A stretch of 64,000 nucleotides of DNA, taken from contig NZ_RBIL01000002.1 in the NCBI RefSeq assembly GCF_003633755.1, forward strand, positions 2,356,001 through 2,420,000, in the 5' to 3' direction. Positions 9,972 through 55,339 of the stretch are shown piece by piece. The first letter of the stretch is position 1, and each line of letters opens with the position of its first letter. Position numbers and translations under genes: made by a program. Under the pieces are notes generated by a model. It saw only the letters and a program-made list of their open reading frames with translations. It had not been told where the DNA came from and ran no database searches. Source of the DNA: Solirubrobacter pauli (GTDB lineage Bacteria; Actinomycetota; Thermoleophilia; Solirubrobacterales; Solirubrobacteraceae).

Positions 9972-11422
9972 CCGCGGTCCCGCAGGACGTTGCGCTGGAC
10001 CTTGCCGGTGGGCGTGCGCGGGAGCGCGTCCACGAGCTCGACGCGGCGCGGGTACTTGTAGGGCGCGATCCGGGCCTTGACGAAGTCCTGCAGCGCCTTC
10101 GCCTCCACGGGCTCGCTCGCGACGACCCACGCCTTGACGACGTGGCCGCGCTCGGGGTCCTCGACGCCGACGACCGCGCACTCGGAGACCGACGGGTGCT
10201 CGAGCAGCGCGGCCTCGACCTCGAAGCCGGAGATGTTGTACCCGGCGCTGATGATCATGTCGTCGGTGCGGGCCTGGAACCAGAAGTAGCCGTCGGCGTC
10301 CATCGAGAACGCGTCGCCGGTGAGGTTCCAGCCGTCGCGTACGTACGTGGCCTGGCGCTCGTCGTCCAGGTAGCGGCAACCGGTCGGGCCGCGCACCGCG
10401 AGCCGGCCGACCTCCCCCGCCGGCAGCGTCTGCATGTCCGGCCCGACGATCCTCGCCTCGTAGCCCGGCACCGGCCGACCGCACGAGCCGGCGCGCGCCT
10501 CCTCCGCGGGGGACGCGATGAAGATGTGCAGCAGCTCGGTCGAGCCGATCCCGTCGACGATGCGGATGCCGGTCTTCTCGAACCACGCGTCCGACACGCC
10601 CGCCGGGAGCGGCTCGCCCGCGGACACGCACGTGTGCAGCGAGTCCGGGAGCGCCTCGCGCAGCAGCGCGCGGTAGGCGGTCGGCGCGGTGAACAGGGTC
10701 GTCACCCGGTGGGCATGGAGCGTCTCGAGCAGCGCCGGCGGCGAGGTCGGCGCGGTCGCCGCGCCGAAGCGGAGCGGGAACAGCAGGGACGCGCCGAGCC
10801 CGAACGTGAACGCGATCGGCGGCGAGCCGGAGAACACGTCGGTCGGCTGCGGGCGCAGGATCTCCCGGGCGAACGTGTCGCAGCAGGCGAGCAGGTCGCG
10901 GTGGAAGTGCACGCAGCCCTTCGGCACGCCGGTGGTACCGCTCGTGAAGGCGATGATCGCGACGTCGTCGGCGCGCGTCTCGACCGCCTCGTACCAGCCC
11001 TGGGTCGGCAGGTCCTCGATCACGAGCACGTCGAGCACGTCGACCTCCGCCACGAGGTCACGCGCGACCAGCGCCTTGGTGACGTTCGCCTTGGCCACGA
11101 CCTTGTCGATCTCGCGCTTGCGCAGCAGCGGCATCGTGGCCACGACGATCCCGCCGGCCAGCAGGATCCCGAGCCAGCAGGCGATCGCCTCCGGCGTGTT
11201 GGGCGAGTGCAGCAGCACGCGCTCGCCCGGCTCGATGTTCAGGGCGCCGGCGACGGCGTCGGCGCGCTCGGCCAGCTCCGCGTAGGACCAGCCGCTCGCG
11301 ATCGCGGTCCCCTCGTTCTTGAGCAGCTCCTCGGCCGCGTTCAGCCGCTCGGGATAGTCGAGCAGCAGCAGGTCCGGCCACTGCTCGACCGGCGGCAACC
11401 CATCACGGGCGAACGGATCCAC
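9968..11422 (-). CDS. Aryl-CoA ligase, probably 2-aminobenzoate-CoA ligase
   Basis: AMP-forming acyl-CoA synthetase of 484 residues, short like benzoate/2-aminobenzoate-CoA ligases. Motifs: P-loop AFTSGTTGVPKG, GSTELLHIF (A5-like), TGDAFSMDADGYFWFQARTDDMI (A7-A8 hinge), and the catalytic lysine region PRTPTGKVQRN at the C-terminus. The GTG start overlaps the preceding TAG by one base and its end overlaps the RidA gene. Inferred reaction: anthranilate + CoA + ATP to 2-aminobenzoyl-CoA, because the operon also encodes the monooxygenase/OYE fusion specific to aminobenzoyl- or salicylyl-CoA metabolism. Benzoate or salicylate remain alternative substrates. Confidence 0.85.
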   Translation of the reverse strand: MDPFARDGLPPVEQWPDLLLLDYPERLNAAEELLKNEGTAIASGWSYAELAERADAVAGALNIEPGERVLLHSPNTPEAIACWLGILLAGGIVVATMPLLRKREIDKVVAKANVTKALVARDLVAEVDVLDVLVIEDLPTQGWYEAVETRADDVAIIAFTSGTTGVPKGCVHFHRDLLACCDTFAREILRPQPTDVFSGSPPIAFTFGLGASLLFPLRFGAATAPTSPPALLETLHAHRVTTLFTAPTAYRALLREALPDSLHTCVSAGEPLPAGVSDAWFEKTGIRIVDGIGSTELLHIFIASPAEEARAGSCGRPVPGYEARIVGPDMQTLPAGEVGRLAVRGPTGCRYLDDERQATYVRDGWNLTGDAFSMDADGYFWFQARTDDMIISAGYNISGFEVEAALLEHPSVSECAVVGVEDPERGHVVKAWVVASEPVEAKALQDFVKARIAPYKYPRRVELVDALPRTPTGKVQRNVLRDRG

Positions 11423-12483
11423 TATCGCAACACCTCCCGGGCGATCACCAGCTGTTGCACCTCCGAAGCGCCCTCGTAGATCCGCAGCGCGCGGATCTCG
11501 CGGTACAGGCGCTCCACCACCTGGCCCGACGTCACGCCGAGCCCGCCGAACAGCTGCACGGCGTCGTCGATCACGCGCTGCGCGGTCTCCGTCGCGTGCA
11601 GCTTGGCCATCGCCGCCTCACGGGTCACGCGCGCGGCGCCACCGTCCTTCGTCCACGCGGCGCGGTAGACGAGCAGCGCGCTCGCGTCGAGCCCGAGCGC
11701 CATCTCGGCCAGCTTGGCCTGCACCAGCGGCAGCTCGGCCATCGGGGCGCCGAACAGCGCACGGTCCTTCACCCGCGTGAGCGCCTCGTCGAACGCGCGC
11801 CGCGCCATGCCCAGCGCCGCCGCGCCGACCGTCGAGCGGAAGACGTCGAGCGTGCCGAGCGCCACGCGCAAGCCCTTGCCGGGCTCGCCGATCGGCGTCG
11901 CGGGCGCGTTGTCGAAGCGCAGCGTCGCGAGCGGGTGCGGCGCGATCACGTCGATGCGCTCGACCACCTCGACGTGCTCGGCGTCGACGACGTACGCGCT
12001 GATGCCCTCCGGCGCCCGCGCGAACACCGTGTAGAAGTCCGCGATCCCGCCGTTGGAGATCCAGGTCTTCACACCGCTCACGCGCCCGTCGCGCGCGGTC
12101 GTCCTCATCGCCGCGACGTCGGACCCGGCGTCCGGCTCCGACAGCGCGAAGGCCGCGATCCGCTCGCCCGCGGCCACCGCCGGCAGATAGCGCTCGCGCA
12201 GCGCCTTCGAGCCGAACAGGGTGATCGGCCCGCTGCCCAGGCCCTGCATGGCGAACGCGAAGTCGGCGAGCGCGTCGTGGTAGGCGAGCGTCTCGCGCGC
12301 GAGGCAGAGCGTGCGCACGTCGAGCGGGTCGGCGACCGCGTGCCCGAGCCACGGCCGCAGCTCCGCGACGAACGCCCGGCAGCGCGCGTCGACGTCGCCG
12401 GTCTCGGGCACGTGCGGGACCTGCTCGCGCGCCCAGCGCGCGAACGCCCGGTGACGGTCCTCGAAGAACGGCCAGTCGAGCAC
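11422..12483 (-). CDS. Acyl-CoA dehydrogenase (aromatic-CoA operon)
   Basis: 353 residues, slightly shorter than the usual 380. It carries the ACAD signatures [19 protein letters not shown] (FAD/substrate), [18 protein letters not shown], and the C-terminal [42 protein letters not shown], which includes the YEG catalytic-glutamate region. GTG start, one base after the upstream enoyl-CoA hydratase stop. In the 2-aminobenzoyl-CoA pathway it would oxidise a ring-derived acyl-CoA in the beta-oxidation-like lower part. The exact substrate is inferred only. The N-terminal alpha domain appears shortened. Confidence 0.9.
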
Positions 12484-12484
12484 G

Positions 12485-13267
12485 TCAGTTGCCCTCGAAC
12501 ACCGGCCGCTCCTTCGCCAGGAACGCGCGGTAGGCCCGCTCGAAGTCCGCCGTCTGCATGCAGATCGCCTGCGCCTGCGCCTCGGCCTCGATCGCCGCCG
12601 GCAACGACATGTCCCACTCCTGGTCGAGCATCGTCTTGGTCATCGCGTGCGCGAAGCTCGGACCGGCCGCGAGCGAGGCGGCGAGCTCCGCGGCCTCGCC
12701 CTCCACGTCGTCCGCCACGCGGTTGAAGAAGCCCCAGCGCTCCCCTTCGGCGGCGTCCATCGAGCGGCCCGTGTAGAGCAGCTCGGCCGCGCGCCCCTGG
12801 CCGACGATCCGCGGCAGCATCGCGCACGCGCCCATGTCGCACCCGGCCAGCCCGACGCGCGTGAACAGGAACGCGACCTTCGCGCGCGGCGAGCCGAGCC
12901 GCAGGTCGGCCGCGGTCGCGATCATCGCCCCGGCGCCCACGCAGACCCCGTCGACGGCCGCGATCACCGGCTTGCCGCAGCCCTTGATGGCCTTCACCAG
13001 GTCGCCCGTCATGCGCGTGAAGCGCAGCAGCTCCGGCATCGTCATCTCGGTCAGCGGCCCGATGATGTCGCGCACGTCGCCGCCGCTGCAGAAGTTGCCC
13101 GCCTCGCCGGCGATGACGACGACGTCGCACGAGTCGTCGTCGACCAGCCCGCGGAAGTGGTCGCGCAGCGCCGCGTAGGACGCGAACGTGAGCGGGTTCT
13201 TGCGCTCCGCCCCCACGAGCGTGACGAAGCCGACGCGCTCGCGGACGTCCCAGCCGAACTCAGCCAT
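12485..13267 (-). CDS. Enoyl-CoA hydratase/isomerase (crotonase) family
   Basis: 260 residues. Crotonase oxyanion-hole segments are visible: [41 protein letters not shown] and [22 protein letters not shown], with Glu/Asp acid-base candidates around GLAGCDMG. The start MAEFGW at 13267 is preferred to an in-frame ATG 9 nt upstream; both overlap the SDR gene end. Probably hydrates, or hydrolytically opens, a ring-derived enoyl-CoA in the 2-aminobenzoyl-CoA pathway. Which step is not readable from sequence. Confidence 0.9.
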
Positions 13268-13934
13268 GCACACCACCGCCGTCGATCAGCAGCGTCTGCC
13301 CGTTGATCGCGCCCGCCTCGTCGGCCGCGAAGAAGCGCACGGCGAACGCGACCTCCTCGGGCTCGATCAACCGGCCGAGCGGCGTCATCGCCACCAGCGC
13401 CGCCTCGCCGTCCTGCCCGGTGCGCGCCCCGATGTTCGCGATCGTCGCGTCCGTCATGTCCGACCGCACGTAGCCCGGGCAGACGCAGTTCGCGGTCACG
13501 CCGGTGCCCGCCAGCTCGGTCGCCAGCGACCGCGTGAAGCCGAGCACCGCGTGCTTGGACGCGGTGTACGCGCTCGTGTAGCGCGAGCCGGCCACGCTCG
13601 CCACGGAGGCCACGGTCACGATCCGCCCCCGGTTGCGCTCGCGCATCCCCGGCAGGACCGCGCGCGTGCACAGGAACGCGCCGGTCGCGTTCACCCCGAG
13701 CTGGCGCTCCCACTCCTCCAGCGACGTGCGGTGCACCGGCGCGCTGGACGACACGCCCGCGTTGTTGACGAGCACGTCGACCTCGAGCCCGCCGAGCACG
13801 GAAGCCACCGCCGCCTCGTCGGTCACGTCCATGTCCGCGCTCCCCAAGGCGATGACGTCGTCACCCGCGAACGCCGCCGAGATGGCCGCGCCGATCCCGC
13901 GCTTGCCACCCGTCACCACGACCGTGCGGCTCAC
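13260..13934 (-). CDS. Short-chain dehydrogenase/reductase in aromatic-CoA operon
   Basis: 224 residues, classical [19 protein letters not shown] (cofactor loop TGxxxGIG), NNAGVSSS, catalytic Ser-Tyr-Lys in [26 protein letters not shown], and a C-terminal [15 protein letters not shown]. The GTG start at 13934 overlaps the ACMR stop (GTGA); the longer in-frame extension upstream overlaps that gene and is not convincing. It is a good candidate for the 3-hydroxyacyl-CoA (or cyclohexanone-carbonyl-CoA) dehydrogenase step of this operon. That assignment is contextual. Confidence 0.88.
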
Positions 13935-16081
13935 GCGGTGACCGCCGAGTCGAAGCGCCGCAGCGGCATCCGCCGCACGTCCTTGCCCGTCTGCGGCTCG
14001 CGCGAGCCCGACCGGTACTGCGGGATCCACTCCATGTCCACTCCTTGGTCGGCGGCGGCGTGCAGGGTCCAGTGCGGGTCCCAGAGGTGCGGGCGCGCCA
14101 GCGCACACAGATCCGCGCGGCCCGCGAGGATGATCGTGTTGACGTCGTCATAGGACGAGATGGCGCCGACCGCGATCACAGGGATGCCCGCCTCGTGGCG
14201 GATGCGGTCGGCGTACGGCGTCTGGAACGAGCGCCCGTACGCCGGGCGCTGATCGGGCACGACCTGACCGGTCGAGACGTCGACGATGTCGCAGCCCGCC
14301 TCCCGCAGCCGGTGCGCGAAGGCCACCGCGTCGTCACCGTCGAAGCCGCCCTGCACCCAGTCCGTCGCGCTGATCCGCACGGACATGGGCCGGCTGTCCG
14401 GCCACACGTCCCGGCACGCCTCCAACACCTCGAGCGGGAACGTCGCGCGGTCGCGCCCGTACTCGTCCGTGCGCCGGTTCGTCCGGGGCGACAGGAACGA
14501 CGACAGCAGGTAGCCGTGCGCCATGTGGATCTCCAGCAGGTCGAAGCCCGCGAGCACCGCGCGGCGCGTCGCGGCGACGAACTGCGCGACCACGTCGTCC
14601 ATGTCCGCGCGGGTCATCTCGCGCGGCACCTGGTGGCGCTCGTCCCAGGGCAACGGCGACGGCGCGATCAACGGCCAGCCGCCGTCCTCCAGCGGTTCGT
14701 TGTCGCCCTCCCACATCAGCTTCGTCGCGCCCTTGCGGCCCGCGTGCCCGAGCTGCGCGCCGATCGCCGACCGCGAATGGGTGTGCACGAAGTCGACGAT
14801 CCGCCGCCACGCGTCCACGTGCTCGTCGCGGTACAGCCCGCCGCAGCCGGGGGTGATCCGCCCGTCCGCCGACGTGCAGATCATCTCGGTCATGACGAGC
14901 CCGGCGCCGCCGATCGCGCGCGCCCCGAGGTGCACGAGGTGGAAGTCGCCCGGCGTGCCGTCGACCGACGTGTACATGTCCATCGGCGACACCACGACCC
15001 GGTTCTCGAGCGTCAGCGACCGCAGCCGCAGCGGCGTGAACATCGGTGGCGACGACGCGACCGACGCCACGAGCTCCGGGTCGCGCAGCTTCAGCTCCCC
15101 GTAGGTGATCCGGCGCGAGCGCGTGAGCAGGTTGAAGGCGAACCGCTTCGGCTCCTGCCCCATGTAGCGGCCGATGCCCTCGAACCACTCGAGCGAGCCC
15201 TGCGCCGCCCGTTGCGTCGACTCCACGATCGGCCGCCGCTCGGCCTCGTAGGCGTCGAGGTCGCCCTCGCGCACCGCCCACGCCAGCGAGATCGCGTCCT
15301 CCATCGCCAGCTTCGTGCCGGACCCGATCGAGAAGTGCGCGGTGTGCGCCGCGTCCCCGAGCAGCACGACGTTCCCGCGCCGCCAGACGGGGTTGCGCAC
15401 GGTGACGAAGTTGATCCAGCGGGTGCGGTTCTCGATCAGCCGGTAGCCGAACAGGTCCTCGCACTGCGCGCGGTCGAGCTCCACACCCGCGCTCTCGACG
15501 ATGAACGTCGAGCGCGAGTCCGAGTACGGGTACGCGTGCACCTGCACGACGCCCTCCGGCGTCTCGGCGATGATGAACGTGAAGGCGTCGAAGACGTGGT
15601 CGGTGCCGAACCAGGCGTAGGTCGCGCGCCGGCGGTCCAGCTCCGGCTCGAAGCCGTACGCGCCGCGCAGCGTGCTGTTGACGCCGTCCGCGGCCACGAC
15701 CAGGTCGCCGTCGAGCCGCGAGACCTCGCTGCGGAACCGCAGATCCACGCCGAGTGCCGCCGCCCGTCGCTGCAGGACGCCGAGCAGCTCGCGCCGACCC
15801 ATCGCCGAGAACCCGTGCCCGCCGCTCGTCACCGTCTCGCCGCGGTAGCGCACGTCGATCGCGCTCCAGCGCACGAACGCGGACGCGATCTCCGCGTAGG
15901 ACTCCGGGTCCGCCGCCTCGAACGCAGCCAGCGTCTCGTCGCTGAAGACGACCCCGAAGCCGAACGTGTCGTCGGGCGCGTTGCGCTCGTGGACGACCAC
16001 CTCGGACGTCGGGTCCAGGCGCTTCAACAGGATCGACAGATACAGCCCGCCGGGGCCGCCGCCCGCGATCGCGATCCGCAT
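13931..16081 (-). CDS. Bifunctional FAD monooxygenase/Old Yellow Enzyme: 2-aminobenzoyl-CoA monooxygenase/reductase-like
   Basis: 716 residues with two fused flavin domains. Residues 1 to about 365 are a PHBH-type FAD monooxygenase: [54 protein letters not shown]. Residues from about 370 ([21 protein letters not shown]) are an FMN Old-Yellow-Enzyme barrel with [29 protein letters not shown] and a C-terminal [14 protein letters not shown]. This fusion is the hallmark of 2-aminobenzoyl-CoA monooxygenase/reductase (hydroxylation plus ring reduction, dearomatising the ring) and of the related salicylyl-CoA 5-hydroxylase. Start at 16081 matches the first residue of the Rossmann strand. It leads the operon, divergent from the TIM-barrel gene. 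Confidence 0.9.
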
Positions 16082-22387: not shown

Positions 22388-23143
22388 ATGACAGAACCGC
22401 ACCGGCCACTGGCGGTCGTGACCGGCGCCTCGAGCGGCATCGGGTTAGCCCTCGCCCGCCAGTTCTCCAACCACGGGTTCGACCTCGTCGTCGCGGCGCG
22501 CGGACCCGAGATCCACGCCGTCGCCGAGCGGCTCGACGCGGAAGGCGTCGAAGTCGACCTCGCCACACCTGACGGCGTCCGCACGCTGCATCAGCACCTC
22601 CGGCACCGGCCGGTCACGGTCCTCGCGCTCAACGCCGGGATCACCGCGCGCAGCGACGACCTGGAGCGCGAGCTCGAGCTGGTCGACCTCAACGTCCGCT
22701 CGCTCGTGCACCTCGCGCGGCTCGTCACGGATGAGATGCGGGCCCGCAAGCGCGGGCGCGTGTTGATCACCGCCTCGATCGTCGAGGCCTTCCCTGGCCC
22801 CCATCAGGCGGCCTACAACGCGAGCAAGGCGTTCGCGCGCTCGTTCGGCATCAGCCTCCGCCACGAGCTGCGCGAGCACGGCGTGAGCGTCACCGTGCTC
22901 GAGCCGGGCGCGACCGACACGCCGATCTTCGAGAAGGCCGACCAGGAGACCACGATCCTCGGCGGGGCGATGCCCAAGGACGATCCCGCCGACGTCGCCG
23001 AGCAGGCGTTCGAGGCGCTGATGGCCGGACGCGAGACGGTGGTGGCGGCCTCGATCACGTCCAAGGCCACGCACCTCGTCAGCCGGCTGCTGCCCGATGC
23101 GGTGACCGCACGGGTCACCGGCCTGCTCACCAAGCCGCGTTAG
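22388..23143 (+). CDS. Short-chain dehydrogenase/reductase
   Basis: 251 residues. SDR signature VVTGASSGIGLALARQFSNHGFDLVVAAR, NAGITARSDD, and catalytic ITASIVEAFPGPHQAAYNASKAFARSF (Ser/Tyr/Lys), followed by VLEPGATDTPIFEKA. It resembles the DltE/YqjQ-like oxidoreductases of unknown substrate. It is convergent with the hotdog thioesterase gene, with which it shares 4 nt at the 3' end. Confidence 0.88.
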   Translation: MTEPHRPLAVVTGASSGIGLALARQFSNHGFDLVVAARGPEIHAVAERLDAEGVEVDLATPDGVRTLHQHLRHRPVTVLALNAGITARSDDLERELELVDLNVRSLVHLARLVTDEMRARKRGRVLITASIVEAFPGPHQAAYNASKAFARSFGISLRHELREHGVSVTVLEPGATDTPIFEKADQETTILGGAMPKDDPADVAEQAFEALMAGRETVVAASITSKATHLVSRLLPDAVTARVTGLLTKPR

Positions 23144-23544
23144 CGTGGCCGGACCGCGATGGTGATGCGGCTCACCGCCACGAGCCGGTCCTCGCCGTCG
23201 GTGTGGTCGACGTCCCACACCCAGGTCGTGCGGCCGCGGTGACGAGCCTTCGCGCGCGCGGTGATCCACGCACCGCGCGCGGGCTTGAGGAAGCTCGTCT
23301 CGTTCGACGAGCCCATCGCCGCGTAGCCGTCCGGGTGGACGACCGCGACCGTCGCCTCGGTCGCGAGCATCTCGGCGAGCGCCGCGTACGCCCCGCCGTG
23401 CACCAGCCCGAAGCGCTGGCGCACGCGGTCCTCGACGGGGAAGCGCGCCACGGCTTCCCCGTCGCCGATCGACACCACCTGGAAGCCGAGGACGCCGTCG
23501 AGGCAGTCGTCCTCGGCCACGACCTCCCCTCCGACCGGCGGCAT
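23140..23544 (-). CDS. PaaI-type hotdog thioesterase
   Basis: 134 residues of the PaaI/YbgC-like hotdog fold: GVLGFQVVSIGDGEAVARFPVEDRVRQRFGLVHGGAYAALAEMLATEATV. The HGG motif and following helix carry the catalytic Glu/Asp region. NETSFLKPARGAWITARAKARHRGRTTWVWDVDHTD is typical of PaaI. PaaI hydrolyses off-pathway aryl-CoA esters and releases CoA. Here it is the last gene of an ALDH/ligase/thioesterase operon next to a phenylacetyl-CoA-epoxidase-like operon, so the same salvage role is likely. Confidence 0.88.
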   Translation of the reverse strand: MPPVGGEVVAEDDCLDGVLGFQVVSIGDGEAVARFPVEDRVRQRFGLVHGGAYAALAEMLATEATVAVVHPDGYAAMGSSNETSFLKPARGAWITARAKARHRGRTTWVWDVDHTDGEDRLVAVSRITIAVRPR

Positions 23545-23546
23545 GC

Positions 23547-25370
23547 CTACGGGCAGATGATCACCTCCGCACCGGGCTGCGCGTCGAACAGCCCGTCGAC
23601 GAACGCGCTGCGCCGCTCGAGCGCCGCGCGCTGGTTCACGTACCCCTTGTCGGTGATCTCGTTCGCGTCCAGCGAGGGCGGCTCCGCCAGCAGGACGACG
23701 CGCTCCACGCGGGTCGAGGACCCGGGGTGCTGCTCGTTGTACGCGCGGATCCGCTCACGCACGAACGCGTGGATCTTGGGCGAGCCGACCAGCGCGTCCA
23801 GCTCGCCGTCCGGCTCCTCCGCGATCTCGCGCGCCGCGCCGAGGTTCAGCCAGGCGAGCAGCCCGACGTAGTCGCGGTCGTGCCCGCAGACGACGGCGTC
23901 CATCAGCAGCGGGGAGGCGGCGGCGAGCGCCTTCACGCGCAGGTTGCCGACGGACACGAACGTGCCGGTCAGCAGCTTGAAGTCCTCCACCACGCGCCCG
24001 TCGAAGACGACGCCCTGGTTGGGATCGTCCGGATCCTCCAGCTTGCCGGCGTCGCCCGTGCGGTACCAGCCGTCCTCGTCGAACGCCTTCGCCGTCAAGT
24101 CCGGCTGGCCGAGGTAGCCGGGCGTGACGTTGGGCCCCTTCACACGCATCTCGAGCTTGCCCTCGACCGGGACGAGCTTGAGCTCGACGCCCGGCACGGG
24201 CACGCCGATCACCCCCGCGCGGTCGATCGGGAAGTGGGCGGCGGTGGCGAGCGGCGACGTCTCGGTCAGCCCCCACGACGAGGTCATCATCACCGGCTCG
24301 CCGCGCGCCTCGCGCGCGACGGCCTCGAGCCGCGTCCAGAGGTCCTGCGGCAGCGCGGCGGCGGCGTAGAAGATCAGGTCCAGCCGCTCGAAGAACTTCG
24401 CCCGCAGCGCCTCGTCGCGCTCGAGGAACGGCAGCAGCGCGCCGTAGCCAGCGGGGACGTTGAAGTAGATCGTCGGCGCGATCTCCGTCAGGTTCCGCAC
24501 GGTGATCGGCATCAGCGGCGGCGCCGGCCGGCCCGCGTCGATGTAGAGCGTGCCGCCGCGCTTGAGGATCAGGTTGAAGTTGTGGTTGCCGCCGAACGTG
24601 TGGTTCCACGGCAGCCAGTCCACGAGCACCGGCGGCGTGCCGGAGGTGAACGGCCAGATCTGCGCGAGCGACTGCTGGTTCGCGCACAGCATCCCGTGGG
24701 TGTTGATCACGCCCTTGGGCATCGCGGTCGAACCCGAGGTGAAGAGGATCTTCGCGACGCTGTCGGGCGTGACCGACGCGAGCGCGTCCTCGACGTCCAT
24801 CGACGGCGTCGTGTCCAGCAGCTCGGCGAACGGCGTCGCGCCCGCGCCGTGCGACGACAGCACCAGCTCGGCGCCGCCGAAGTCCACGGCCGACAGCACG
24901 CCGCCGAACGGCCCGGCGTCCGACGCGTAGACGAGCCCCGGCTTCACGAGCGCGGCGATGTGCTTGACCTTGCCGAAGTCGGCGCTCATCAGCGAGTACG
25001 CCGGCGAGACGGGCACGACGGGCACGCCGGCCAGGAAGCCACCTAACGTCAGCAGCGCGTGGTCGATCGCGTTGCCCGACAGGATCAGCACCGGGCGGTC
25101 CGGTCCAAGCCCGCGGTCGAGCAGCGCCTGGGCGACGCTGTTCGCCTTGCGCCCGGCTTCACCCCAGGTGAGTTCGATCCAGTTGCCGTCGGGACCGCGC
25201 TCGGCCAGGAAAACGCGGTCGGGCGTCTCGCGCGCCCAGTGGCGCAGCAGCAGGCCGAGACTCGCCTCGTAAGGCTCGAGCTCCATCTCGGACTTCAGGA
25301 TCAGGCTCCCGTCCGGCGCGTCGCGAGCGACGATCCGGGGCGGGGCCAATGCGGGTTGCACGACCGGCAT
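23547..25370 (-). CDS. Feruloyl-CoA-synthase-like aryl-CoA ligase
   Basis: 607 residues, the length of feruloyl-CoA synthases. Motifs: P-loop FTSGSTAMPKGVINTH (usual GL replaced by AM), DWLPWNHTFGGNHNFN, FYAAAALPQDLW, SSWGLTETSPLAT, GWYRTGDAGKLEDPDD, and VVEDFKLLTGTFVSVGNLR. Activates hydroxycinnamates or related aryl acids to CoA thioesters in this family. Start at 25370 has GAGGAGGAGAG a few nt upstream; an upstream in-frame extension is antisense to the ALDH gene. Middle gene of the ALDH-ligase-thioesterase operon. Confidence 0.88.
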   Translation of the reverse strand: MPVVQPALAPPRIVARDAPDGSLILKSEMELEPYEASLGLLLRHWARETPDRVFLAERGPDGNWIELTWGEAGRKANSVAQALLDRGLGPDRPVLILSGNAIDHALLTLGGFLAGVPVVPVSPAYSLMSADFGKVKHIAALVKPGLVYASDAGPFGGVLSAVDFGGAELVLSSHGAGATPFAELLDTTPSMDVEDALASVTPDSVAKILFTSGSTAMPKGVINTHGMLCANQQSLAQIWPFTSGTPPVLVDWLPWNHTFGGNHNFNLILKRGGTLYIDAGRPAPPLMPITVRNLTEIAPTIYFNVPAGYGALLPFLERDEALRAKFFERLDLIFYAAAALPQDLWTRLEAVAREARGEPVMMTSSWGLTETSPLATAAHFPIDRAGVIGVPVPGVELKLVPVEGKLEMRVKGPNVTPGYLGQPDLTAKAFDEDGWYRTGDAGKLEDPDDPNQGVVFDGRVVEDFKLLTGTFVSVGNLRVKALAAASPLLMDAVVCGHDRDYVGLLAWLNLGAAREIAEEPDGELDALVGSPKIHAFVRERIRAYNEQHPGSSTRVERVVLLAEPPSLDANEITDKGYVNQRAALERRSAFVDGLFDAQPGAEVIICP

Positions 25371-25419: not shown

Positions 25420-26796
25420 CTACGACCGGCGAACCACCACCGACTTCTGGTCCGTGTAGTAGTCGAGGGCCTCCGACCCGTGCTCCTTGCCGTAGCCGGA
25501 CGCCTTGAGCCCGCCGAACGGCAGCTCGTCGTAGACCTTGGTGCGCGAGTTGACCCACGTGTAGCCGCAGTCGAGCTCCGTCGCCGCGCGCTCGGCGCGG
25601 CGCAGGTCGCTCGTCCACACGCTCGACCCCAACCCGAACGGCGACGCGTTCGCCAGCTCGATCGCCTCGTCCAGGTCCCGCACGCGCCAGATCGGGAGCG
25701 CGGGACCGAAGACCTCCTCGACGGCCATCGGCGAGTCCTTGCGCGGCTCGACCACCACGGTCGGCTCGTGGAACCAGCCGCGGTCGAGCCCGTCCGGACG
25801 ACCTCCGCCGGCCACGACCTCGCCACCGCTCTCGGCGATCTGGCGCTCGAGCTGATCGCGCTGCTTGGCGCTGTGCAGCGGCCCCATCTGGCTGTTGGGA
25901 TCGTCACCGAGGCCGACCCGCAGGCGCTTGGCCTTGGCCGCGACCGCCTCGATGATCTCGTCGGCGACGCTGTCGAACACGTACAGGCGCTTGATCGCCA
26001 GGCACGCCTGGCCGCAGTTGTAGAAGCGGCCCATGGCGGCCGCCGAGGCCGCGGACTTCAGGTCGGCGTCGTCGCAGATGATCATCGGGTCGCTGCCGCC
26101 GAGCTCGAGCGTGACGCGCTTGGAGCCGACGGCGGCCAGCGCCGCCACACGCTCGCCGACCGGGGTCGAGCCCGTGAAGGCCACCTTGCGCACGAGCGGG
26201 TGACGGACGAGCGCCTCCCCGGCGACCGCGCCGGTGCCCGGCAGCACGGTGAACACGCCCTCGGGCACGCCCGCCTCGGCGAAGATCTCACCCAACCGCA
26301 GCGTGGTGAGCGGCGTGCTGTCGGCGGGCTTGGCCACCACCGTGTTGCCGCACAGCAACGCCGGGCCGAGCTTGTTGCACAGCAGCGTGGTCGGGAAGTT
26401 CCAGGGCACGATCGCGGCGACCACGCCGAGCGGGCGCCGGAGCACGCGTCCGTCGACGTCGGTGTCGACGTTGTGGATCGACACGGCCCGCACCTGGCGC
26501 GACAGCCCGGCGTAGTGCTCGAGCGTGTCGGCCGCCTTGCGCAGCTCGATCTTGGCTTCGCGGATCGTCTTGCCCTGCTCGCGCACGAGGATCGGCGTCA
26601 GCTCGTCGACGTGCGCCTCGAAGGCCTCGGCCATCGCGTGCAGGACCTTGCCGCGGTCGGCGTAGCCGAGGCGTCCCCAGTCGCGCTGCGCGGCGTGCGC
26701 GGCGCCCACCGCGCGGTCGACGTCCTCGGGCGTCGCGGCCGGGACGGACGCGACCGGCTCCCCCGTTCCCGGGTTGACGATCTCAAGACTGGTCAT
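25420..26796 (-). CDS. NAD(P)-dependent aldehyde dehydrogenase
   Basis: 458 residues. ALDH motifs: VPWNFPTTLLCNKLGPALLCGNTVVAKPADSTP, cofactor loop FTGSTPVGERV, catalytic Glu in VTLELGGSDP, catalytic Cys in FYNCGQACLAIKR, and EEVFGPALPIWR. Closest in style to succinate-semialdehyde and aromatic (vanillin/benzaldehyde-type) dehydrogenases. It heads an operon with an aryl-CoA ligase, so oxidation of an aromatic aldehyde to the acid that is then CoA-activated is a reasonable inference. Divergent from the paa-like operon, with the start codons 66 nt apart around a TTGAC-N4-GTCAA dyad. Confidence 0.9.
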   Translation of the reverse strand: MTSLEIVNPGTGEPVASVPAATPEDVDRAVGAAHAAQRDWGRLGYADRGKVLHAMAEAFEAHVDELTPILVREQGKTIREAKIELRKAADTLEHYAGLSRQVRAVSIHNVDTDVDGRVLRRPLGVVAAIVPWNFPTTLLCNKLGPALLCGNTVVAKPADSTPLTTLRLGEIFAEAGVPEGVFTVLPGTGAVAGEALVRHPLVRKVAFTGSTPVGERVAALAAVGSKRVTLELGGSDPMIICDDADLKSAASAAAMGRFYNCGQACLAIKRLYVFDSVADEIIEAVAAKAKRLRVGLGDDPNSQMGPLHSAKQRDQLERQIAESGGEVVAGGGRPDGLDRGWFHEPTVVVEPRKDSPMAVEEVFGPALPIWRVRDLDEAIELANASPFGLGSSVWTSDLRRAERAATELDCGYTWVNSRTKVYDELPFGGLKASGYGKEHGSEALDYYTDQKSVVVRRS

Positions 26797-26824: not shown

Positions 26825-26861
26825 CTCGCTCGTCAACATGATGTCTCACGTTGGAGGAGCC

Positions 26862-27782
26862 GTGGAGGTCGTCGCGCCCCGAACCGAGGACGAGGTCCGA
26901 GCGCATCTGGCCGCCGGCAAGCTCGTCGAGGGCTTGCAGCACATGTCCCCCGAGTACCTGAAGGGGATCCGCCGCATCCTCACCGTCTCGGCCGACACCG
27001 AGCTCGTCTCCGCGCCCGCCTACCTGCGCGCCGCGTCGCACGCGCCGGCGCTCAACAACTTCGGCTCCGCGGTCTCGATCATCCAGGACGAGCTCGCGCA
27101 CGCCCACATCGGCTACCGCCTGCTCGGGGACCTCGGCGTCGACATGCCGGCGCTCATCTACGAGCGCGAGGCGCACGCCTTCAAGTACCCGTACGCGTTC
27201 GACGTGCCGCTGGACTCCTGGTACGAGCTCGTGCTGGCCAACGCGCTCTACGACCAGGCCGGCTTCGTGCTCTTGAGCGACGTGCACCAGTCGTCCACGT
27301 TCGGCCCGTGGAAGCGCGCGCTGGCCAAGGTCGACAAGGAGGAGACGTTCCACCTGCGCCATGGCCGCACGTGGGTGAAGAAGTTCGCCGCCGACCCCGA
27401 CCACAAGCGCAAGCTGCAGGCGTCGCTGGACTGGATGTTCATCCTCACCCTCGAGTGGTTCGGGCTGCCGGACGAGCGCAAGAAGCACGGCATCCAGCTC
27501 GAGTACGGCTTCAAGGGCAAGACCAACGACGAGCTGCGCCAGGACTGGATGGGCCACGTCGTCCCGTTCATGGACGAGGTCGGCCTCGACGTGCCCGCGC
27601 ACTTCGACGAAGAGGCGCAGCGCTACGTCATCGACTGCCCGTTCCCGCAGCAGTTCGACGGCGAGAAGAAGCAGTGGGGCGGCGTCGAGATCGGCTGGGA
27701 CGAGGTCATGACGCGCTGGAAGGGGCGCGGGCCGATGAACGAGACGTACGTCGCGAAGCTGCAGAAGGGCTACCGCGGATGA
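26862..27782 (+). CDS. paaA: Phenylacetyl-CoA epoxidase PaaA-like diiron oxygenase subunit
   Basis: 306 residues of the PaaA/PaaC ferritin-like family. Diiron ligand motifs are visible: IIQDELAHAHIG (Glu77-x-x-His80) and KVDKEETFHLRHG (Glu161-x-x-His164), with the characteristic TNDELRQDWMGHVVPFMDEVGL and QWGGVEIGWDEVMTRWKGRGPMN at the end. Sequence around these blocks diverges from the Escherichia coli enzyme as remembered, so the aryl-CoA substrate may differ. GTG at 26862 is chosen because GGAGGAG precedes it and a promoter fits upstream; in-frame ATGs at 26838/26841 lack an RBS. First gene of a five-gene operon with 4-nt overlaps. Confidence 0.85.
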   Translation: MEVVAPRTEDEVRAHLAAGKLVEGLQHMSPEYLKGIRRILTVSADTELVSAPAYLRAASHAPALNNFGSAVSIIQDELAHAHIGYRLLGDLGVDMPALIYEREAHAFKYPYAFDVPLDSWYELVLANALYDQAGFVLLSDVHQSSTFGPWKRALAKVDKEETFHLRHGRTWVKKFAADPDHKRKLQASLDWMFILTLEWFGLPDERKKHGIQLEYGFKGKTNDELRQDWMGHVVPFMDEVGLDVPAHFDEEAQRYVIDCPFPQQFDGEKKQWGGVEIGWDEVMTRWKGRGPMNETYVAKLQKGYRG

Positions 27783-28090
27783 GCGTCGAAGCCCGGCTGT
27801 GGGAGGCCCTGACCGAGGTCGAGGACCCGGAGATCCCGATCTCCGTCGTGCACATGGGGCTGATCGTCGCGATCGCCTACGACGCCGGCGTGGTCGACCT
27901 CAAGCTCACGTTCACCGCGATGGGCTGCCCGGCGATGGAGTTCATCCAGGACGACATCCGCGAGCGGCTGCTGGCCGAGCCCGACGTCGACGAGGTGCGG
28001 ATCGAGATCGTCTGGGACCCGGTGTGGACGCGCAAGCTGATCCGCGAGGAGGCGCGCGGGCGCATGCGCGAGCTGGGGATCGTGGCGTGA
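27779..28090 (+). CDS. paaD: PaaD N-terminal (MIP18/DUF59) iron-sulfur assembly protein, lacking the zinc ribbon
   Basis: 103 residues: LWEALTEVEDPEIPISVVHMGLIVAIAYDAGVVDLKLTFTAMGCPAMEFI, the MIP18/DUF59 domain with the conserved Cys in the MGCPAM loop. Canonical PaaD (about 160 residues) continues into a four-cysteine zinc ribbon. Here the protein stops after the DUF59 domain, and that ribbon is encoded by a separate small gene at 28925. PaaD-type proteins mature the Fe-S cluster of the reductase or the diiron centre. ATGA overlap with paaA and GTGA overlap with paaB. Confidence 0.85.
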   Translation: MSVEARLWEALTEVEDPEIPISVVHMGLIVAIAYDAGVVDLKLTFTAMGCPAMEFIQDDIRERLLAEPDVDEVRIEIVWDPVWTRKLIREEARGRMRELGIVA

Positions 28091-28266
28091 TCTGGGAAGT
28101 CTTCGCCCGCAAGGCCTACGAGGACCCGCTGCACCACGTGGGCACGGTCACCGAGTCCGACGAGGACCTCGCGCTCGTGTCCGCCCGCTCGATCTACGAC
28201 GAGCAGCCGTGGATCCACATGATCATCGTGCCGCGCGACTCGATCCGGGAGGCGATCAAGCCATGA
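28087..28266 (+). CDS. paaB: PaaB-like small subunit of the oxygenase
   Basis: 59 residues: MIWEVFARKAYEDPLHHVGTVTESDEDLALVSARSIYDEQPWIHMIIVPRDSIREAI. This matches the PaaB pattern (EVFxR...LxHVGSVxAxDxxxAL..AR..Y..R.E), shortened to about two thirds of the usual 95 residues and lacking the C-terminal tail. PaaB bridges the PaaAC heterodimers. GTG start in a GTGA overlap; the gene is too short for many automated calls but its position between paaD and paaC and the motif make it convincing. Confidence 0.85.
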   Translation: MIWEVFARKAYEDPLHHVGTVTESDEDLALVSARSIYDEQPWIHMIIVPRDSIREAIKP

Positions 28267-28928
28267 AGACCCTCCTCGCCTCCCTGGCCGACAATAAGGC
28301 CGCGCTGGGCCGCCGCTACGCGGAGTGGGCGGTGAGCGCCCCGACGCTCGAGAGCGCCGTCGCCGCCGCCGCGATGGCGCAGGACGAGCTCGGCCACTCC
28401 CGTTCCACCTACCCCGTGCTGAAGGGGCTCGGCGTGGACGCCAACGAGGACGGCTTCGGCGGCGACAAGCGGCTCGCGCTGCTCGACGACGAGCTGCCCG
28501 ACTGGAACGCGTTCATCGCCGCGAACCTGCTGGTCGACGGCGTGCTCACGACGTTCGTCGCCTCCTGCGTGGACTCGACGCTCACGCCGATGGCGCAGCG
28601 CGCGAAGAAGATCCTCCAGGAGGAGGGCTCGCACCGCGCGCACGGCGAGGCATGGGCGCGCCGCCTGTGCCGCGGCGAGCAGCGCGACGCGTTCGTGGCC
28701 CGGCTGCTGGAGACGTGGGAGCACGCGGGCCGCTGGGTCGGCCCGGACGACGACGCCGAGCTGCGCGCCGCGGTCGAGGCCGGCGAGGTCTCCCGCGACG
28801 CGGCCGCGCAGCGCGAGCTCATGCGCGCCTGGCTGACCGAGCTGCTGGCCGCCGAGGGCGTGGACGTGACCCTGCCCGAGCTGACGTTCGACGGCTGGGA
28901 CGCCGAGCGCCGCCGGTGGCCGGCGTGA
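28263..28928 (+). CDS. paaC: PaaC-like ferritin-fold subunit retaining two EXXH motifs
   Basis: 221 residues, paralogous to PaaA. PaaC is normally the structural, metal-poor partner. Here two full diiron-type motifs remain: AQDELGHS (Glu42-x-x-His45) and LQEEGSHRAHG (Glu121-x-x-His124), with Glu21 in RRYAEW as a possible further ligand. That may mean PaaC binds iron, unlike the well-studied enterobacterial subunit. ATGA overlap with paaB and GTGA with the zinc-ribbon gene. The C-terminus is shorter than in canonical PaaC. Confidence 0.82.
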   Translation: MKTLLASLADNKAALGRRYAEWAVSAPTLESAVAAAAMAQDELGHSRSTYPVLKGLGVDANEDGFGGDKRLALLDDELPDWNAFIAANLLVDGVLTTFVASCVDSTLTPMAQRAKKILQEEGSHRAHGEAWARRLCRGEQRDAFVARLLETWEHAGRWVGPDDDAELRAAVEAGEVSRDAAAQRELMRAWLTELLAAEGVDVTLPELTFDGWDAERRRWPA

Positions 28929-29146
28929 CCTGCCCGTTCTGCGACTCGGCGCAGGTCGAGCGCGTCGCGCAGTGGGGCGGCCAGATCATCACCGCGCAGT
29001 GGCGCTGCACGGCGTGCAACTCGTACTTCGAAGCCGTCCGCGACGACTACAACGACACTCCGGCGAGCACGCCGAGCGCGAGCGAGCCCAGCACCGGCGC
29101 CGCCGCCAGCGGGCGCCAGAACGCGAACCGCCCCGAGGCGGCGTAG
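28925..29146 (+). CDS. Detached PaaD zinc-ribbon domain as a separate small protein
   Basis: 73 residues. The first about 40 read CPFCDSAQVERVAQWGGQ followed by TAQWRCTACNSYFEAVR: two CxxC pairs and the hydrophobic spacing of the C-terminal zinc ribbon of PaaD. GTG start within a GTGA overlap with paaC shows it belongs to the operon. The last about 30 residues (rich in Ser/Ala/Pro/Asn) are unlike any PaaD and lie entirely antisense to the convergent membrane-protein gene, so the tail may be recent read-on after loss of the original stop. Presumably acts with the DUF59 protein in metal-centre assembly. Confidence 0.75.
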   Translation: MTCPFCDSAQVERVAQWGGQIITAQWRCTACNSYFEAVRDDYNDTPASTPSASEPSTGAAASGRQNANRPEAA

Positions 29147-36103: not shown

Positions 36104-37699
36104 ATGACGGACTTGCTGCATCAGGACACCGGCGTGCACGTCGATCTGGACGGTGGCTCGCTCACGATCGCCGACGCCGTGCGGCTCGCTCGTCACGGCG
36201 GAACCGCGACGCTCTCCCCCGCGGCGGCCCGCCGCGTCGAGGCCGCGCGTGCGCTCAAGCAGGACCTGATCGCGCGTGAGATCCCGATCTACGGCGTCAC
36301 CACCGGCTTCGGGGACAGCGCGCACCGTCAGATCGCGCCCGAGAAGGCCGCGGCGCTGCAGCAGAACATGCTCCGCTTCCTCGGCGCCGGCACGGGCCAG
36401 ACCGCGAACCCCGAGGTGACGCGGCTGACGATGCTGTTCCGCGCGAACTGCCTGGCCAAGGGCAATTCCGGCGTGCGGTTGGAGGTCATCGAGCAGCTGC
36501 TCACGCTGCTCAACCACGACATCCTGCCGCTCATCCCCGAGCGCGGCTCGTGCGGCGCGTCCGGCGATCTCGTCCCGCTGTCGTACGTCGGCCGCGCGCT
36601 CGTCGGTGAGACCGAGGTGCTCTACGACGGCGACGTCCGCGAGGCGATCGACGTGCTCACCGACCTGGGCATCAAGCCGCTCGAGCTGGAGGCCAAGGAA
36701 GGGCTCGCGCTCACCAACGGCACGTCGTTCATGTCCGGGTTCTCCGTGCTGGCGGCGCACGACGCGCGTGAGCTCGCGTTCGTCGTCGAGCTGTGCACGG
36801 CGATGGCGTCGCAGGCGCTGGCCGGCAACCACGGCCACTTCAACGCCTTCCTGTTCGAGGCCAAGCCGCACCCGGGGATCATCGAGAGCGCGGCCAACGT
36901 CCGGATGCTGCTCGACGGCTCCGAGCTTACGCACGACGCGGAGGAGATCGTCCCGCTCGACGGCGCCGGCTTCCGCGAGCTCACACGCTCGGTGCAGGAC
37001 AAGTACTCGGTCCGCTGCGCGCCGCACATCGTCGGCGCGCTGCGCGACACGCTCGAGTGGGTGGACCGCTGGATCGAGGTCGAGATCAACTCGTCCGACG
37101 ACAACCCGCTGTTCGACGTCCCGGGCGGCCGCGCCCAGAGCGGCGGCAACTTCTACGGCAGCCACATGGCCCAGGGCATGGACGCGCTGAAGATCGCGCT
37201 GGCCAACCTGTGCGACCTGATGGACCGCCAGCTCGAGCTGGTGGTGGACGAGAAGTTCAACGCGGGCCTGACGCCCAACCTGATCCCGTACTTCGCCCAC
37301 GACGACTTCGAAGCCGGTCTCCATCACGGCTTCAAGGGGATGCAGCTCTCGTGCTCGGCGCTCACCGCCGAGGCCTTGAAGCTGTGCAACCCGGCGAGCA
37401 TCCATTCGCGCTCGACCGAGGCCCATAACCAGGACAAGGTCTCCATGGGGACGATCAGCGCGCGTGACGCGCGCTCGATCGTGGAGATCGCCCAGCACAT
37501 CGCCGCGATCCACCTGATCGCGCTCTCGCAGGCACTCGACCTGCGCGGAGTCGACCAGGCCAGCCCCAAGGTCCGTGAGGCCCACGCGCTCATCCGCGCG
37601 CGTGTCGCCCCGCTGGACCGCGACCGACGGATGGACCGTGACATCGCCTCCGTCGTCGAGCTGATCCGGTCGGGCGAGCTGAGTCACGTCCTGGCGTAG
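36104..37699 (+). CDS. MIO-dependent aromatic amino acid ammonia-lyase, probably phenylalanine ammonia-lyase/aminomutase type
   Basis: 531 residues, HAL/PAL superfamily. The autocatalytic MIO triad Ala152-Ser153-Gly154 sits in RGSCGASGDLVPLSYVGRAL. The catalytic loop has Tyr63 in IYGVTTGFGDSAHR. The substrate-selectivity pair is Phe92-Leu93 in LQQNMLRFLGAGTG: FL is characteristic of phenylalanine ammonia-lyases, HL of tyrosine and SH of histidine lyases. The closest style is bacterial EncP/AdmH-like PAL/phenylalanine 2,3-aminomutase. The product would be cinnamate or beta-phenylalanine. No hut genes are adjacent. ATG at 36104 is chosen over 36065 because the preceding segment is non-conserved. 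A 10-bp hairpin follows the stop. Confidence 0.87.
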   Translation: MTDLLHQDTGVHVDLDGGSLTIADAVRLARHGGTATLSPAAARRVEAARALKQDLIAREIPIYGVTTGFGDSAHRQIAPEKAAALQQNMLRFLGAGTGQTANPEVTRLTMLFRANCLAKGNSGVRLEVIEQLLTLLNHDILPLIPERGSCGASGDLVPLSYVGRALVGETEVLYDGDVREAIDVLTDLGIKPLELEAKEGLALTNGTSFMSGFSVLAAHDARELAFVVELCTAMASQALAGNHGHFNAFLFEAKPHPGIIESAANVRMLLDGSELTHDAEEIVPLDGAGFRELTRSVQDKYSVRCAPHIVGALRDTLEWVDRWIEVEINSSDDNPLFDVPGGRAQSGGNFYGSHMAQGMDALKIALANLCDLMDRQLELVVDEKFNAGLTPNLIPYFAHDDFEAGLHHGFKGMQLSCSALTAEALKLCNPASIHSRSTEAHNQDKVSMGTISARDARSIVEIAQHIAAIHLIALSQALDLRGVDQASPKVREAHALIRARVAPLDRDRRMDRDIASVVELIRSGELSHVLA

Positions 37700-54421: not shown

Positions 54422-54647
54422 CGCCGCGCATGTCGAGCCGCGTCTCCCCCGGCGTGCGCATCAGCCGCAGCAGCACGCTGTCGCATTCAGGGCAGCGCAG
54501 CACCTCCCCCATGCCCTCGTAGACCATCACGGTGGCGACCGGGCCGCTCACCCCACAGCCCGCGCACGTGGCGACGGCGCCGGAGAGGTCGCCGGTGAAG
54601 ACGGCCGACAGGTCGCCGGCCACTGCGTTCCCGTCCAGATGGGTCAT
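54390..54647 (-). CDS. DUF6510 family protein (four-cysteine metal site)
   Basis: 85 residues: MTHLDGNAVAGDLSAVFTGDL, then CAGCG and CPECD as two CxxC pairs, RLMRTPGETRLDMRGVSLL at the end. This matches the actinobacterial DUF6510 pattern and probably binds zinc or an Fe-S cluster. Such genes commonly sit beside molybdopterin sulfite-oxidase-like and ferredoxin-reductase-like genes, as here. Its ATG overlaps the reductase stop. Function unknown. Confidence 0.8.
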   Translation of the reverse strand: MTHLDGNAVAGDLSAVFTGDLSGAVATCAGCGVSGPVATVMVYEGMGEVLRCPECDSVLLRLMRTPGETRLDMRGVSLLRWRSAA

Positions 54648-55327: not shown

Positions 55328-55339
55328 GTGCGGCGGACG

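What the first reader, a model, noticed from the sequence alone, without database searches (positions are those of the whole stretch)
26862..29146. Split PaaD: DUF59 domain and zinc ribbon encoded by separate genes around PaaB and PaaC
Gene order is A-D(N)-B-C-D(zinc ribbon), all in 4-nt overlaps, and no PaaE reductase is visible. Canonical PaaD is one protein with both domains. The split, the shortened PaaB and divergent PaaA suggest a distinct aryl-CoA oxygenase branch, perhaps with another electron donor and another substrate.
Basis: partly seen in the sequence, partly recalled or inferred. Interest (0 to 1): 0.72.

Follow-up and report, generated by a model that had tools for sequence, protein, structure and literature searches.

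The report
Ring-attacking oxygenase with split helper protein
A soil bacterium carries an old, widespread relative of the enzyme that breaks open the ring of phenylacetate, apparently without its usual electron-supplying partner and with its helper protein PaaD made as two separate proteins, which offers a way to find out what PaaD does.

Summary
The window genome (Solirubrobacter by nearest relatives) has PaaA, PaaD-DUF59, PaaB, PaaC and a zinc ribbon, each overlapping the next by 4 nt. The split is no error: among 80 fetched relatives D lies between A and B in 77 of 77 with PaaB in view, 69 show a separate ribbon, and D and ribbon never share a frame; haloarchaea and Thermus have it too. The genome has one PaaA, one such ribbon and no PaaE over cut-off; none of 20 other branch genomes has one either. 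Rooted on PaaC, the PaaA tree puts this branch opposite all other types; the simplest reading is split PaaD first, fusion later, PaaE last. New signatures: PaaA keeps six iron ligands but lacks the E. coli 'lysine bridge' (80 of 80), and PaaC has a lysine in its ligand columns (73 of 73). PaaC keeps its ligands in other PaaE-less types (34 of 34) and lacks them beside PaaE (33 of 33; one clade, so one event). Likely an aryl-CoA epoxidase; substrate and electron donor unknown.

The parts
26838..27782 (+). PaaA-like catalytic di-iron subunit, 314 aa (or from GTG 26862); six iron ligands and Phe108 kept, lysine bridge replaced by Tyr/Ile
   Evidence: AF2 model pLDDT 92.4, best solved match PaaA 4ii4/3pvr TM 0.82
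27779..28090 (+). PaaD N-terminal part (DUF59 / FeS_assembly_P), 103 aa, separate gene
   Evidence: D tree puts it with PaaD N-domains, apart from the own genome's two other main DUF59 groups
28087..28266 (+). short PaaB-like bridging subunit, 59 aa
   Evidence: PF06243 positions 4-58 of 89; branch range about 57-77 aa, median 65
28263..28928 (+). PaaC-like subunit, 221 aa, keeps ExxH-D-ExxH with Lys in place of the first Glu (signature KEHDEH)
   Evidence: AF2 model pLDDT 95.8, best solved match PaaC 3pvr_C
28925..29146 (+). PaaD C-terminal part: four-Cys zinc ribbon as a separate gene, 73 aa with a variable tail
   Evidence: PF23451; four Cys invariant in 33 of 33 chosen rows
25420..26796 (-). 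divergent aldehyde dehydrogenase, conserved beside the operon in Solirubrobacter
23547..25349 (-). acyl-CoA synthetase (NCBIfam PRK12582), candidate aryl-CoA ligase
   Evidence: 804 bits, over cut-off 777
23140..23544 (-). PaaI-like hotdog thioesterase
   Evidence: 4HBT 52.8 bits

Best explanation
The five genes encode a CoA-dependent aryl epoxidase of the PaaA/PaaC superfamily, from a deep branch that never acquired the PaaE reductase. PaaA holds the catalytic di-iron site and attacks the ring of an aryl-CoA. PaaC is its paired subunit, and the short PaaB bridges them. The DUF59 protein (D) and the four-Cys ribbon (Z) together do the job of PaaD: they act as a two-piece maturation factor that loads or repairs the iron of the oxygenase. 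Because D and Z persist where no PaaE exists, their client should be the PaaA (and perhaps PaaC) metal site, not an iron-sulfur cluster of PaaE. Electrons come from a separate carrier, probably a small ferredoxin, encoded beside the operon in haloarchaea and elsewhere in the genome in other members. The product is opened by PaaG-like enoyl-CoA hydratases and an aldehyde dehydrogenase, encoded about 1.96 Mb away in this genome. Shown: genes, order, conservation, no PaaE over cut-off, ligand patterns, trees. Inferred: epoxidation, the maturation role, the client, the donor, the route of the product.
For: Families and fold. Iron ligands E42, E72, H75, D126, E155, H158 (named in PMC4498308, passages) are present in 80 of 80 branch PaaA. 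D and Z are in all 20 branch loci whose genomes were searched for PaaE, with 0 of 20 over cut-off and 5 of 20 without any match at E 0.001. Positive controls: 448.8 bits (G196) and 373-482 in 8 of 8 canonical genomes. Z has four Cys in 33 of 33 chosen rows. D groups with the PaaD N-domains, 99/94, apart from two other DUF59 groups that I labelled SufT and Mrp. A 2Fe-2S ferredoxin gene lies divergent to the operon in 4 of 4 haloarchaeal branch loci fetched. The own pathway island at C2:414-434 kb holds a PaaX-like regulator, a benzoate-CoA-ligase-family ligase, an aldehyde dehydrogenase, two enoyl-CoA hydratases and a PaaY-like protein. PaaD being needed in vivo but not in vitro is reported in PMC4498308 (passages).
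Against: No biochemistry on any member appeared in my paper searches. None of the curated PaaA/B/C/D/E cut-offs is met, so another reaction is possible. The ligase beside the operon differs between members. Outside haloarchaea no PaaE-like or 2Fe-2S-ferredoxin-like gene was found next to the operon; other kinds of carrier were not searched for. Several branch genomes do hold distant class IA reductases (best 156.8 bits) that could serve. A role of D and Z in Fe-S delivery to an unlinked ferredoxin cannot be excluded. The ribbon could instead carry electrons: one weak rubredoxin match, E 0.0019, over half its length.
Confidence: 0.62

Rival explanations
1. It is an ordinary phenylacetyl-CoA epoxidase in which PaaD was recently split and PaaE lost in this lineage; nothing else differs.
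For: Pfam superfamily hits; Phe108 and iron ligands kept; PaaX-like, PaaY-like and PaaG-like genes in the genome.
Against: PaaA clade 100/100, opposite all other types when rooted on PaaC; same split in Chloroflexota, Actinomycetota, Thermus and haloarchaea; lysine bridge absent in 80 of 80.
Confidence: 0.1
2. The ribbon protein is the electron carrier (rubredoxin-like), replacing PaaE, and D loads its iron.
For: No PaaE over cut-off; four invariant Cys; weak rubredoxin match; a haloarchaeal homologue is named PaaE by NCBIfam.
Against: The same ribbon is fused to DUF59 in canonical PaaD, which coexists with PaaE and is not needed in vitro (PMC4498308); the Gly after each Cys pair, which I recall as typical of rubredoxins, is not conserved.
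Confidence: 0.12
3. It acts on an aryl-CoA other than phenylacetyl-CoA, such as benzoyl-CoA or a hydroxycinnamoyl-CoA.
For: Genes best matching a benzoate-CoA-ligase-family ligase near 18 of 52 loci with more than 5 kb on each side of PaaA; PRK12582-type ligase beside the window operon (its feruloyl-CoA label is recalled).
Against: PaaK-type ligases beside other members (2 of 52; L130); a PaaX-like gene (below its curated cut-off) and a PaaY-like gene (labelled by BLAST) in the genome; Phe108 kept.
Confidence: 0.35
4. A decayed or unused locus.
For: The pathway genes are not next to it in Solirubrobacter.
Against: Third-position bias of changes against L042; 90-95% PaaA identity and the same five genes in Solirubrobacter loci L041, L042, L043, L045 and L053.
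Confidence: 0.04

Closest known systems
Canonical phenylacetyl-CoA 1,2-epoxidase PaaABC(D)E (E. coli; solved structures 3PVR, 4IIT, 4II4)
   Same: PaaA and PaaC folds (TM 0.82 and 0.83), six PaaA iron ligands, Phe108, B subunit, DUF59 plus ribbon domains
   Different: PaaD split into two genes in order A-D-B-C-Z; no PaaE over cut-off; Tyr/Ile in place of Glu49/Lys68; PaaC keeps ExxH-D-ExxH with a Lys in most members; PaaB about 57-77 aa instead of 95
Haloarchaeal PaaABCDE of Haloferax/Natrinema (NCBIfam NF041867-NF041869, where 'PaaE' is the 56-aa ribbon)
   Same: DUF59 and ribbon are separate genes; no PaaE reductase seen in the six loci fetched
   Different: Order A-B-C-D-Z; lysine bridge kept; full PaaC ligand set; different PaaA clade
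Thermus thermophilus pTF24b 'paaA_2' locus and the Haloarcula/Halalkalicoccus/Haloterrigena/Halostella plasmid loci
   Same: Same branch and order A-D-B(-B)-C-Z
   Different: In the three annotated haloarchaeal loci the D gene is listed as a metal-sulfur cluster assembly factor and the ribbon, where listed, as a hypothetical protein; haloarchaea add a divergent ferredoxin gene and, in those three, an acetyltransferase gene
Benzoyl-CoA epoxidase BoxB
   Same: Distant di-iron fold relative
   Different: Monomeric with a BoxA reductase (PMC4498308, passages); much weaker match (TM about 0.6, rmsd 8-10)

Membership tests
Canonical PaaABCDE (NCBIfam TIGR02156-TIGR02160) | PaaA equivalog cut-off 280 bits | tested here: not met
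   103.6 bits
Canonical PaaABCDE (NCBIfam TIGR02156-TIGR02160) | PaaB and PaaC equivalog cut-offs 85.45 and 133.35 bits | tested here: not met
   26.4 and 66.4 bits
Canonical PaaABCDE (NCBIfam TIGR02156-TIGR02160) | PaaD as one protein with DUF59 and ribbon, cut-off 108.15 bits | tested here: not met
   two genes (71.4 and 27.9 bits) separated by paaB and paaC
Canonical PaaABCDE (NCBIfam TIGR02156-TIGR02160) | PaaE reductase in the genome | tested here: not met
   best 107.4 against cut-off 420.8; control 448.8
Canonical PaaABCDE (NCBIfam TIGR02156-TIGR02160) | PaaA iron ligands E42, E72, H75, D126, E155, H158 | tested here: met
Canonical PaaABCDE (NCBIfam TIGR02156-TIGR02160) | PaaA lysine bridge Glu49-Lys68 | tested here: not met
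   Tyr and Ile
Canonical PaaABCDE (NCBIfam TIGR02156-TIGR02160) | NADPH- and O2-dependent epoxidation of phenylacetyl-CoA | not testable with these tools
   needs enzyme assay
Haloarchaeal PaaABCDE (NF041867-NF041869) | PaaB, PaaD and ribbon cut-offs 150, 180 and 100 bits | tested here: not met
   21.3, 98.7 and 19.4 bits
Haloarchaeal PaaABCDE (NF041867-NF041869) | Gene order A-B-C-D-ribbon | tested here: not met
   A-D-B-C-ribbon
PaaA/PaaC superfamily (Pfam PF05138) | gathering score 28.5 bits | tested here: met
   174.7 (PaaA) and 97.4 (PaaC)
A-D-B-C-Z branch defined here | clade in PaaA tree, order A-D-B-C-Z, Tyr/Ile for the lysine bridge, Lys in the PaaC ligand columns | tested here: met
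BoxB benzoyl-CoA epoxidase (TIGR03225) | cut-off 499.1 bits | tested here: not met
   PaaA: not listed at E up to 0.1; PaaC: 12.6 bits

The most novel reading that the evidence does not exclude
PaaE-less oxygenases of this superfamily are two-centre machines. PaaC is not just structural but carries its own site: a full six-ligand di-iron set in the fused-PaaD and haloarchaeal types (34 of 34 readable), and a lysine-modified, perhaps metal-free, acid/histidine set in the window's branch (Lys at the Glu42 or Glu72 column in 73 of 73). This site takes part in electron or proton transfer from small ferredoxins to PaaA. The arrival of PaaE made it dispensable, which is why canonical PaaC has lost its ligands (33 of 33). 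The buried lysine sits in PaaC in this branch and in PaaA (Lys68) in the others.
Probability: 0.2. Interest if true: 0.82.

Novelty: new variant of a known kind. Interest (0 to 1): 0.63.

Why it matters
PaaD has been a protein of unknown role: needed in vivo, dispensable in vitro (PMC4498308, passages). A large natural family that keeps both halves of PaaD while lacking PaaE argues that PaaD serves the oxygenase itself, and having the halves as separate genes lets each be removed alone. The branch also suggests that the textbook PaaABCDE enzyme is the derived form, and it turns PaaC from a structural subunit into a testable metal-site protein in PaaE-less systems. Genome surveys that treat PaaA and PaaC as phenylacetate markers, or call such loci partial, may misread them.

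Tried and rejected
Sequencing error: rejected, the split recurs in relatives. Canonical operon elsewhere in the genome: rejected for the genome as held. PaaE substitute beside the operon: E. coli PaaE, its two halves and the haloarchaeal ferredoxin were sought at E up to 1 in the loci fetched by then; outside haloarchaea and the canonical L037 only the window's own 54647-55339 frame and two chance-level hits (L115, L056; about 12.5 bits) came up. The own-genome 107-bit reductase is a MOSC fusion. An HcaD-like FAD reductase lies in the own pathway island, but no homologue at E 1e-8 lies in the fetched branch loci. The two Rubrobacter genomes matched the PaaE model only over its ferredoxin part; in one, G264, this is an 89-aa Fer2 protein; the other was not scanned.

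A single fusion of PaaD is not shown. L130b (Thermogemmatispora, fused) sits outside the other fused rows in the PaaA tree on a long branch; holding all fused rows together is not rejected (p-AU 0.32). In one search I labelled L220 and L221 as a third DUF59 group although they appear to be this branch's own D genes from other Solirubrobacter genomes (they sit beside the window's D, 93% identical for L220), so that call's p-AU 0.0255 means nothing and I do not use it; the labels SufT and Mrp there are mine, from score and frame length.

Results against the two-centre reading: two Nitriliruptorales PaaC (L099, L108) and eight Rubrobacter-type PaaC have lost other ligands without a PaaE in their loci. 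The canonical type is one clade, so the link between PaaE and PaaC ligand loss is one evolutionary event. PaaE can also be lost within the canonical type: PMC2653477 (passages) reports Bordetella pertussis without paaE. L167 shows a canonical PaaC without PaaE, but its contig ends there; L015 duplicates L037; neither is in the counts. Outside the 80-locus set two divergent branch members, L124 and L130a, have also lost Phe108 (Leu, Met).

Not pursued: a structure of D with Z as a complex (the tool takes single chains), substrate docking, Bacillota and Deinococcota chromosomes (no locus at hand), other kinds of electron carrier near the loci. Ten paper searches: neither their listings nor the passages I read describe a split PaaD or this branch; subscription papers are mostly not held. 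Papers seen as passages only: PMC9493321, PMC13186573, PMC10694973, PMC4498308, PMC2653477; no paper was read whole.
Full report
WHAT IS THERE. The window lies in a 7.1 Mb genome held as 4 contigs, 96.5% complete, whose nearest relatives at this locus are Solirubrobacter species (the same-genus genome G232 and the S. deserti locus L053 both lie on a contig of 207,492 bases). Five genes follow each other with 4-nt overlaps: PaaA-like 26838-27782, DUF59 27779-28090, PaaB-like 28087-28266, PaaC-like 28263-28928 and a four-Cys ribbon 28925-29146. All five pass their Pfam cut-offs. None passes the curated NCBIfam cut-offs for canonical PaaA, B, C or D. On the other strand lie an aldehyde dehydrogenase, a PRK12582-type acyl-CoA synthetase and a hotdog thioesterase.

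THE SPLIT IS REAL AND OLD. A PaaA scan of named genomes gave 140 relatives, of which the best 80 were fetched (54-95% identity; L042 and L053 appear to be one strain under two names, so the 80 are not all independent). They come from Solirubrobacterales, Rubrobacter, Ktedonobacteria and other Chloroflexota, Nitriliruptorales, and bins labelled Proteobacteria, KSB1, Armatimonadota, Acidobacteria, Dormibacteraeota and others. In one search the order is A-D-B-C-Z in 49, A-D-B-B-C-Z in 18 and Z-A-D-B-C in 2. Eleven lack Z: in ten the contig ends before the end of PaaC or within 81 nt after its hit, and one (L086) has 495 nt. D and Z are never in one open frame. The same order stands in Thermus thermophilus plasmid pTF24b and in haloarchaeal plasmids. 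In the window's class, searched 249 genomes: 48 match, 5 of them at 61-100% identity (this branch), the other 43 at 22-30% in their best match.

OTHER TYPES. Gene maps give three more arrangements. In the haloarchaeal type (Haloferax, Natrinema, Natribaculum) the order is A-B-C-D-Z with D and Z separate; NCBIfam calls that ribbon PaaE. In a type common in the window's class the order is A-B-C-(DZ), fused wherever the short locus reaches the ribbon, without PaaE. In the canonical type it is A-B-C-(DZ)-E.

NO PaaE. With the PaaE model (cut-off 420.8 bits) the own genome reaches 107.4, and 0 of 20 other branch genomes pass (best 156.8; 5 of 20 have no match at E 0.001). Two further branch genomes reach at most 97.7 and two more at most 118.3. 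Fused PaaE-less genomes reach at most 88.1 (G085 and G009; 13 genomes plus G266). Canonical genomes: 448.8 and 8 of 8 with 373-482 bits, 6 over the cut-off. The panel's E. coli control does not pass; since it is also absent from the ribbon search's hits, I suppose that control strain lacks the operon.

TREES. PaaA and PaaC are paralogues, so PaaC can root PaaA. In the joint tree of 110 chosen rows the 34 branch PaaA rows form one clade (SH-aLRT 95), opposite the haloarchaeal, fused and canonical PaaA rows (100). The PaaC half is less clear: the branch rows are one side of a branch with support 64 only, several on very long branches. In the PaaA-only tree the branch has 100/100 and the canonical type 100/100. 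Split PaaD therefore lies on both sides of the deepest PaaA fork, so the simplest reading is split first, fusion later, PaaE last. A single fusion is compatible with the data (p-AU 0.32) but not shown. The DUF59 proteins of all four types group apart from the two other main DUF59 groups of these genomes (99/94, few columns), so the branch D gene is the counterpart of the PaaD N-domain; a long-branched DUF59 paralogue of Solirubrobacter (L217, L219) falls inside that group. This differs from a 2026 survey, which names Gammaproteobacteria as the likely ancestral origin of the pathway and files all 32 haloarchaeal cases as partial PaaA-PaaC configurations (PMC13186573, passages).

ACTIVE SITES. 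E. coli PaaA ligands Glu42, Glu72, His75, Asp126, Glu155, His158, the lysine bridge of Lys68 with Glu49, Glu72 and Asp126, and Phe108, which orients the substrate, are named in PMC4498308 (passages). In 80 of 80 branch PaaA all six ligands and Phe108 are kept, but Glu49 and Lys68 are Tyr and Ile; the four haloarchaeal branch members have Tyr and Val. PaaC at the same columns: loci with PaaE have neither Glu72 nor Glu155 in 33 of 33 (30, 3). Fused PaaE-less loci keep all six in 28 of 28 (the genomes of 16 of these 28 were searched for PaaE, the rest only within the locus). The haloarchaeal split type keeps them in 6 of 6 (Asp for Glu42 in two; PaaE looked for in the loci only). In the branch, of 73 readable PaaC of 80 loci, 58 read KEHDEH, 3 KEHGEH, 2 KDHDEH, 2 KHQD(A/S)H and 8 (E/V)K(H/Q)(G/S)ET, so a lysine stands at the Glu42 or Glu72 column in 73 of 73. 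I fetched the seven loci after seeing the pattern, and all seven fit it. The canonical rows are one clade, so this is one event and not an independent correlation; ligand loss without PaaE also occurs (L099, L108 and the Rubrobacter group).

MODELS. AlphaFold models of window PaaA (pLDDT 92.4) and PaaC (95.8) match solved PaaA and PaaC best. The top PaaA match, 4ii4, is the E. coli E49Q K68Q lysine-bridge mutant; the branch carries changes at these two positions naturally.

SURROUNDINGS. Among 52 branch loci with more than 5 kb on each side of PaaA (47 of the 80 named-genome loci, four plasmid loci and the window), genes best matching these queries lie within 9 kb: an enoyl-CoA hydratase (36), aldehyde dehydrogenase (30), benzoate-CoA-ligase-family ligase (18), PaaG-like hydratase (15), PaaY (11), PaaK (2); PaaE 0. 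In the own genome the matching set lies at C2:414-434 kb, about 1.96 Mb away, with a PaaX-like regulator (161 bits, cut-off 264.55) and an HcaD-like FAD reductase (249 bits, cut-off 450). In four of four haloarchaeal branch loci fetched a [2Fe-2S] ferredoxin gene is divergent to the operon.

READING. Most likely this is a PaaE-less aryl-CoA epoxidase whose maturation factor PaaD is still in its original two pieces. The strongest mechanistic inference is that PaaD serves the oxygenase metal site: D and Z persist in 20 of 20 genomes without a PaaE over cut-off. What remains unknown is the substrate, the electron donor and whether PaaC binds metal.

Noticed in passing
window 9585-16081 (minus strand): Operon-like run with a salicylyl-CoA 5-hydroxylase/oxidoreductase-like protein (1038 bits, just under cut-off 1078), a benzoate-CoA-ligase-like protein, an acyl-CoA dehydrogenase, an enoyl-CoA hydratase-like, a short-chain-dehydrogenase-like and a RidA-type protein: perhaps a second aryl-CoA route in the same window.
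   Followed up: partly
L130 (Thermogemmatispora tikiterensis C2:256000-275900): Holds a divergent A-D-B-C-Z set with a PaaK-like ligase and, a few kb away, an A-B-C-fused-PaaD set; with L059 the genome has three PaaA-type oxygenases and no match to the PaaE model.
   Followed up: partly
22 of 80 branch loci, e.g. L085 11290-11658: Two PaaB-like genes in tandem (second copy about 62-74 aa), possibly a heterodimeric bridge.
   Followed up: partly
L124 (Agrobacterium tumefaciens pAtLMG292b 137-140 kb): A still more divergent A-D-B-C-Z set (33% PaaA identity, Gln/Ala for the lysine bridge) beside an AMP-binding protein and a coniferyl aldehyde dehydrogenase.
   Followed up: partly
L153 17191-17850 (own genome C2, about 431.2 kb): Ribonucleotide-reductase-small-chain-like protein (36.1 bits, cut-off 33.6) inside the aryl-CoA pathway island.
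   Followed up: no
window 36104-37699: Aromatic amino acid lyase family gene (564 bits), HutH or phenylalanine ammonia-lyase type not resolved.
   Followed up: no
window 54390-55297 (minus strand): NAD-binding oxidoreductase (50 bits PF00175) overlapping a DUF6510 gene; the only PaaE-like hit inside the window, with no ferredoxin domain found.
   Followed up: partly
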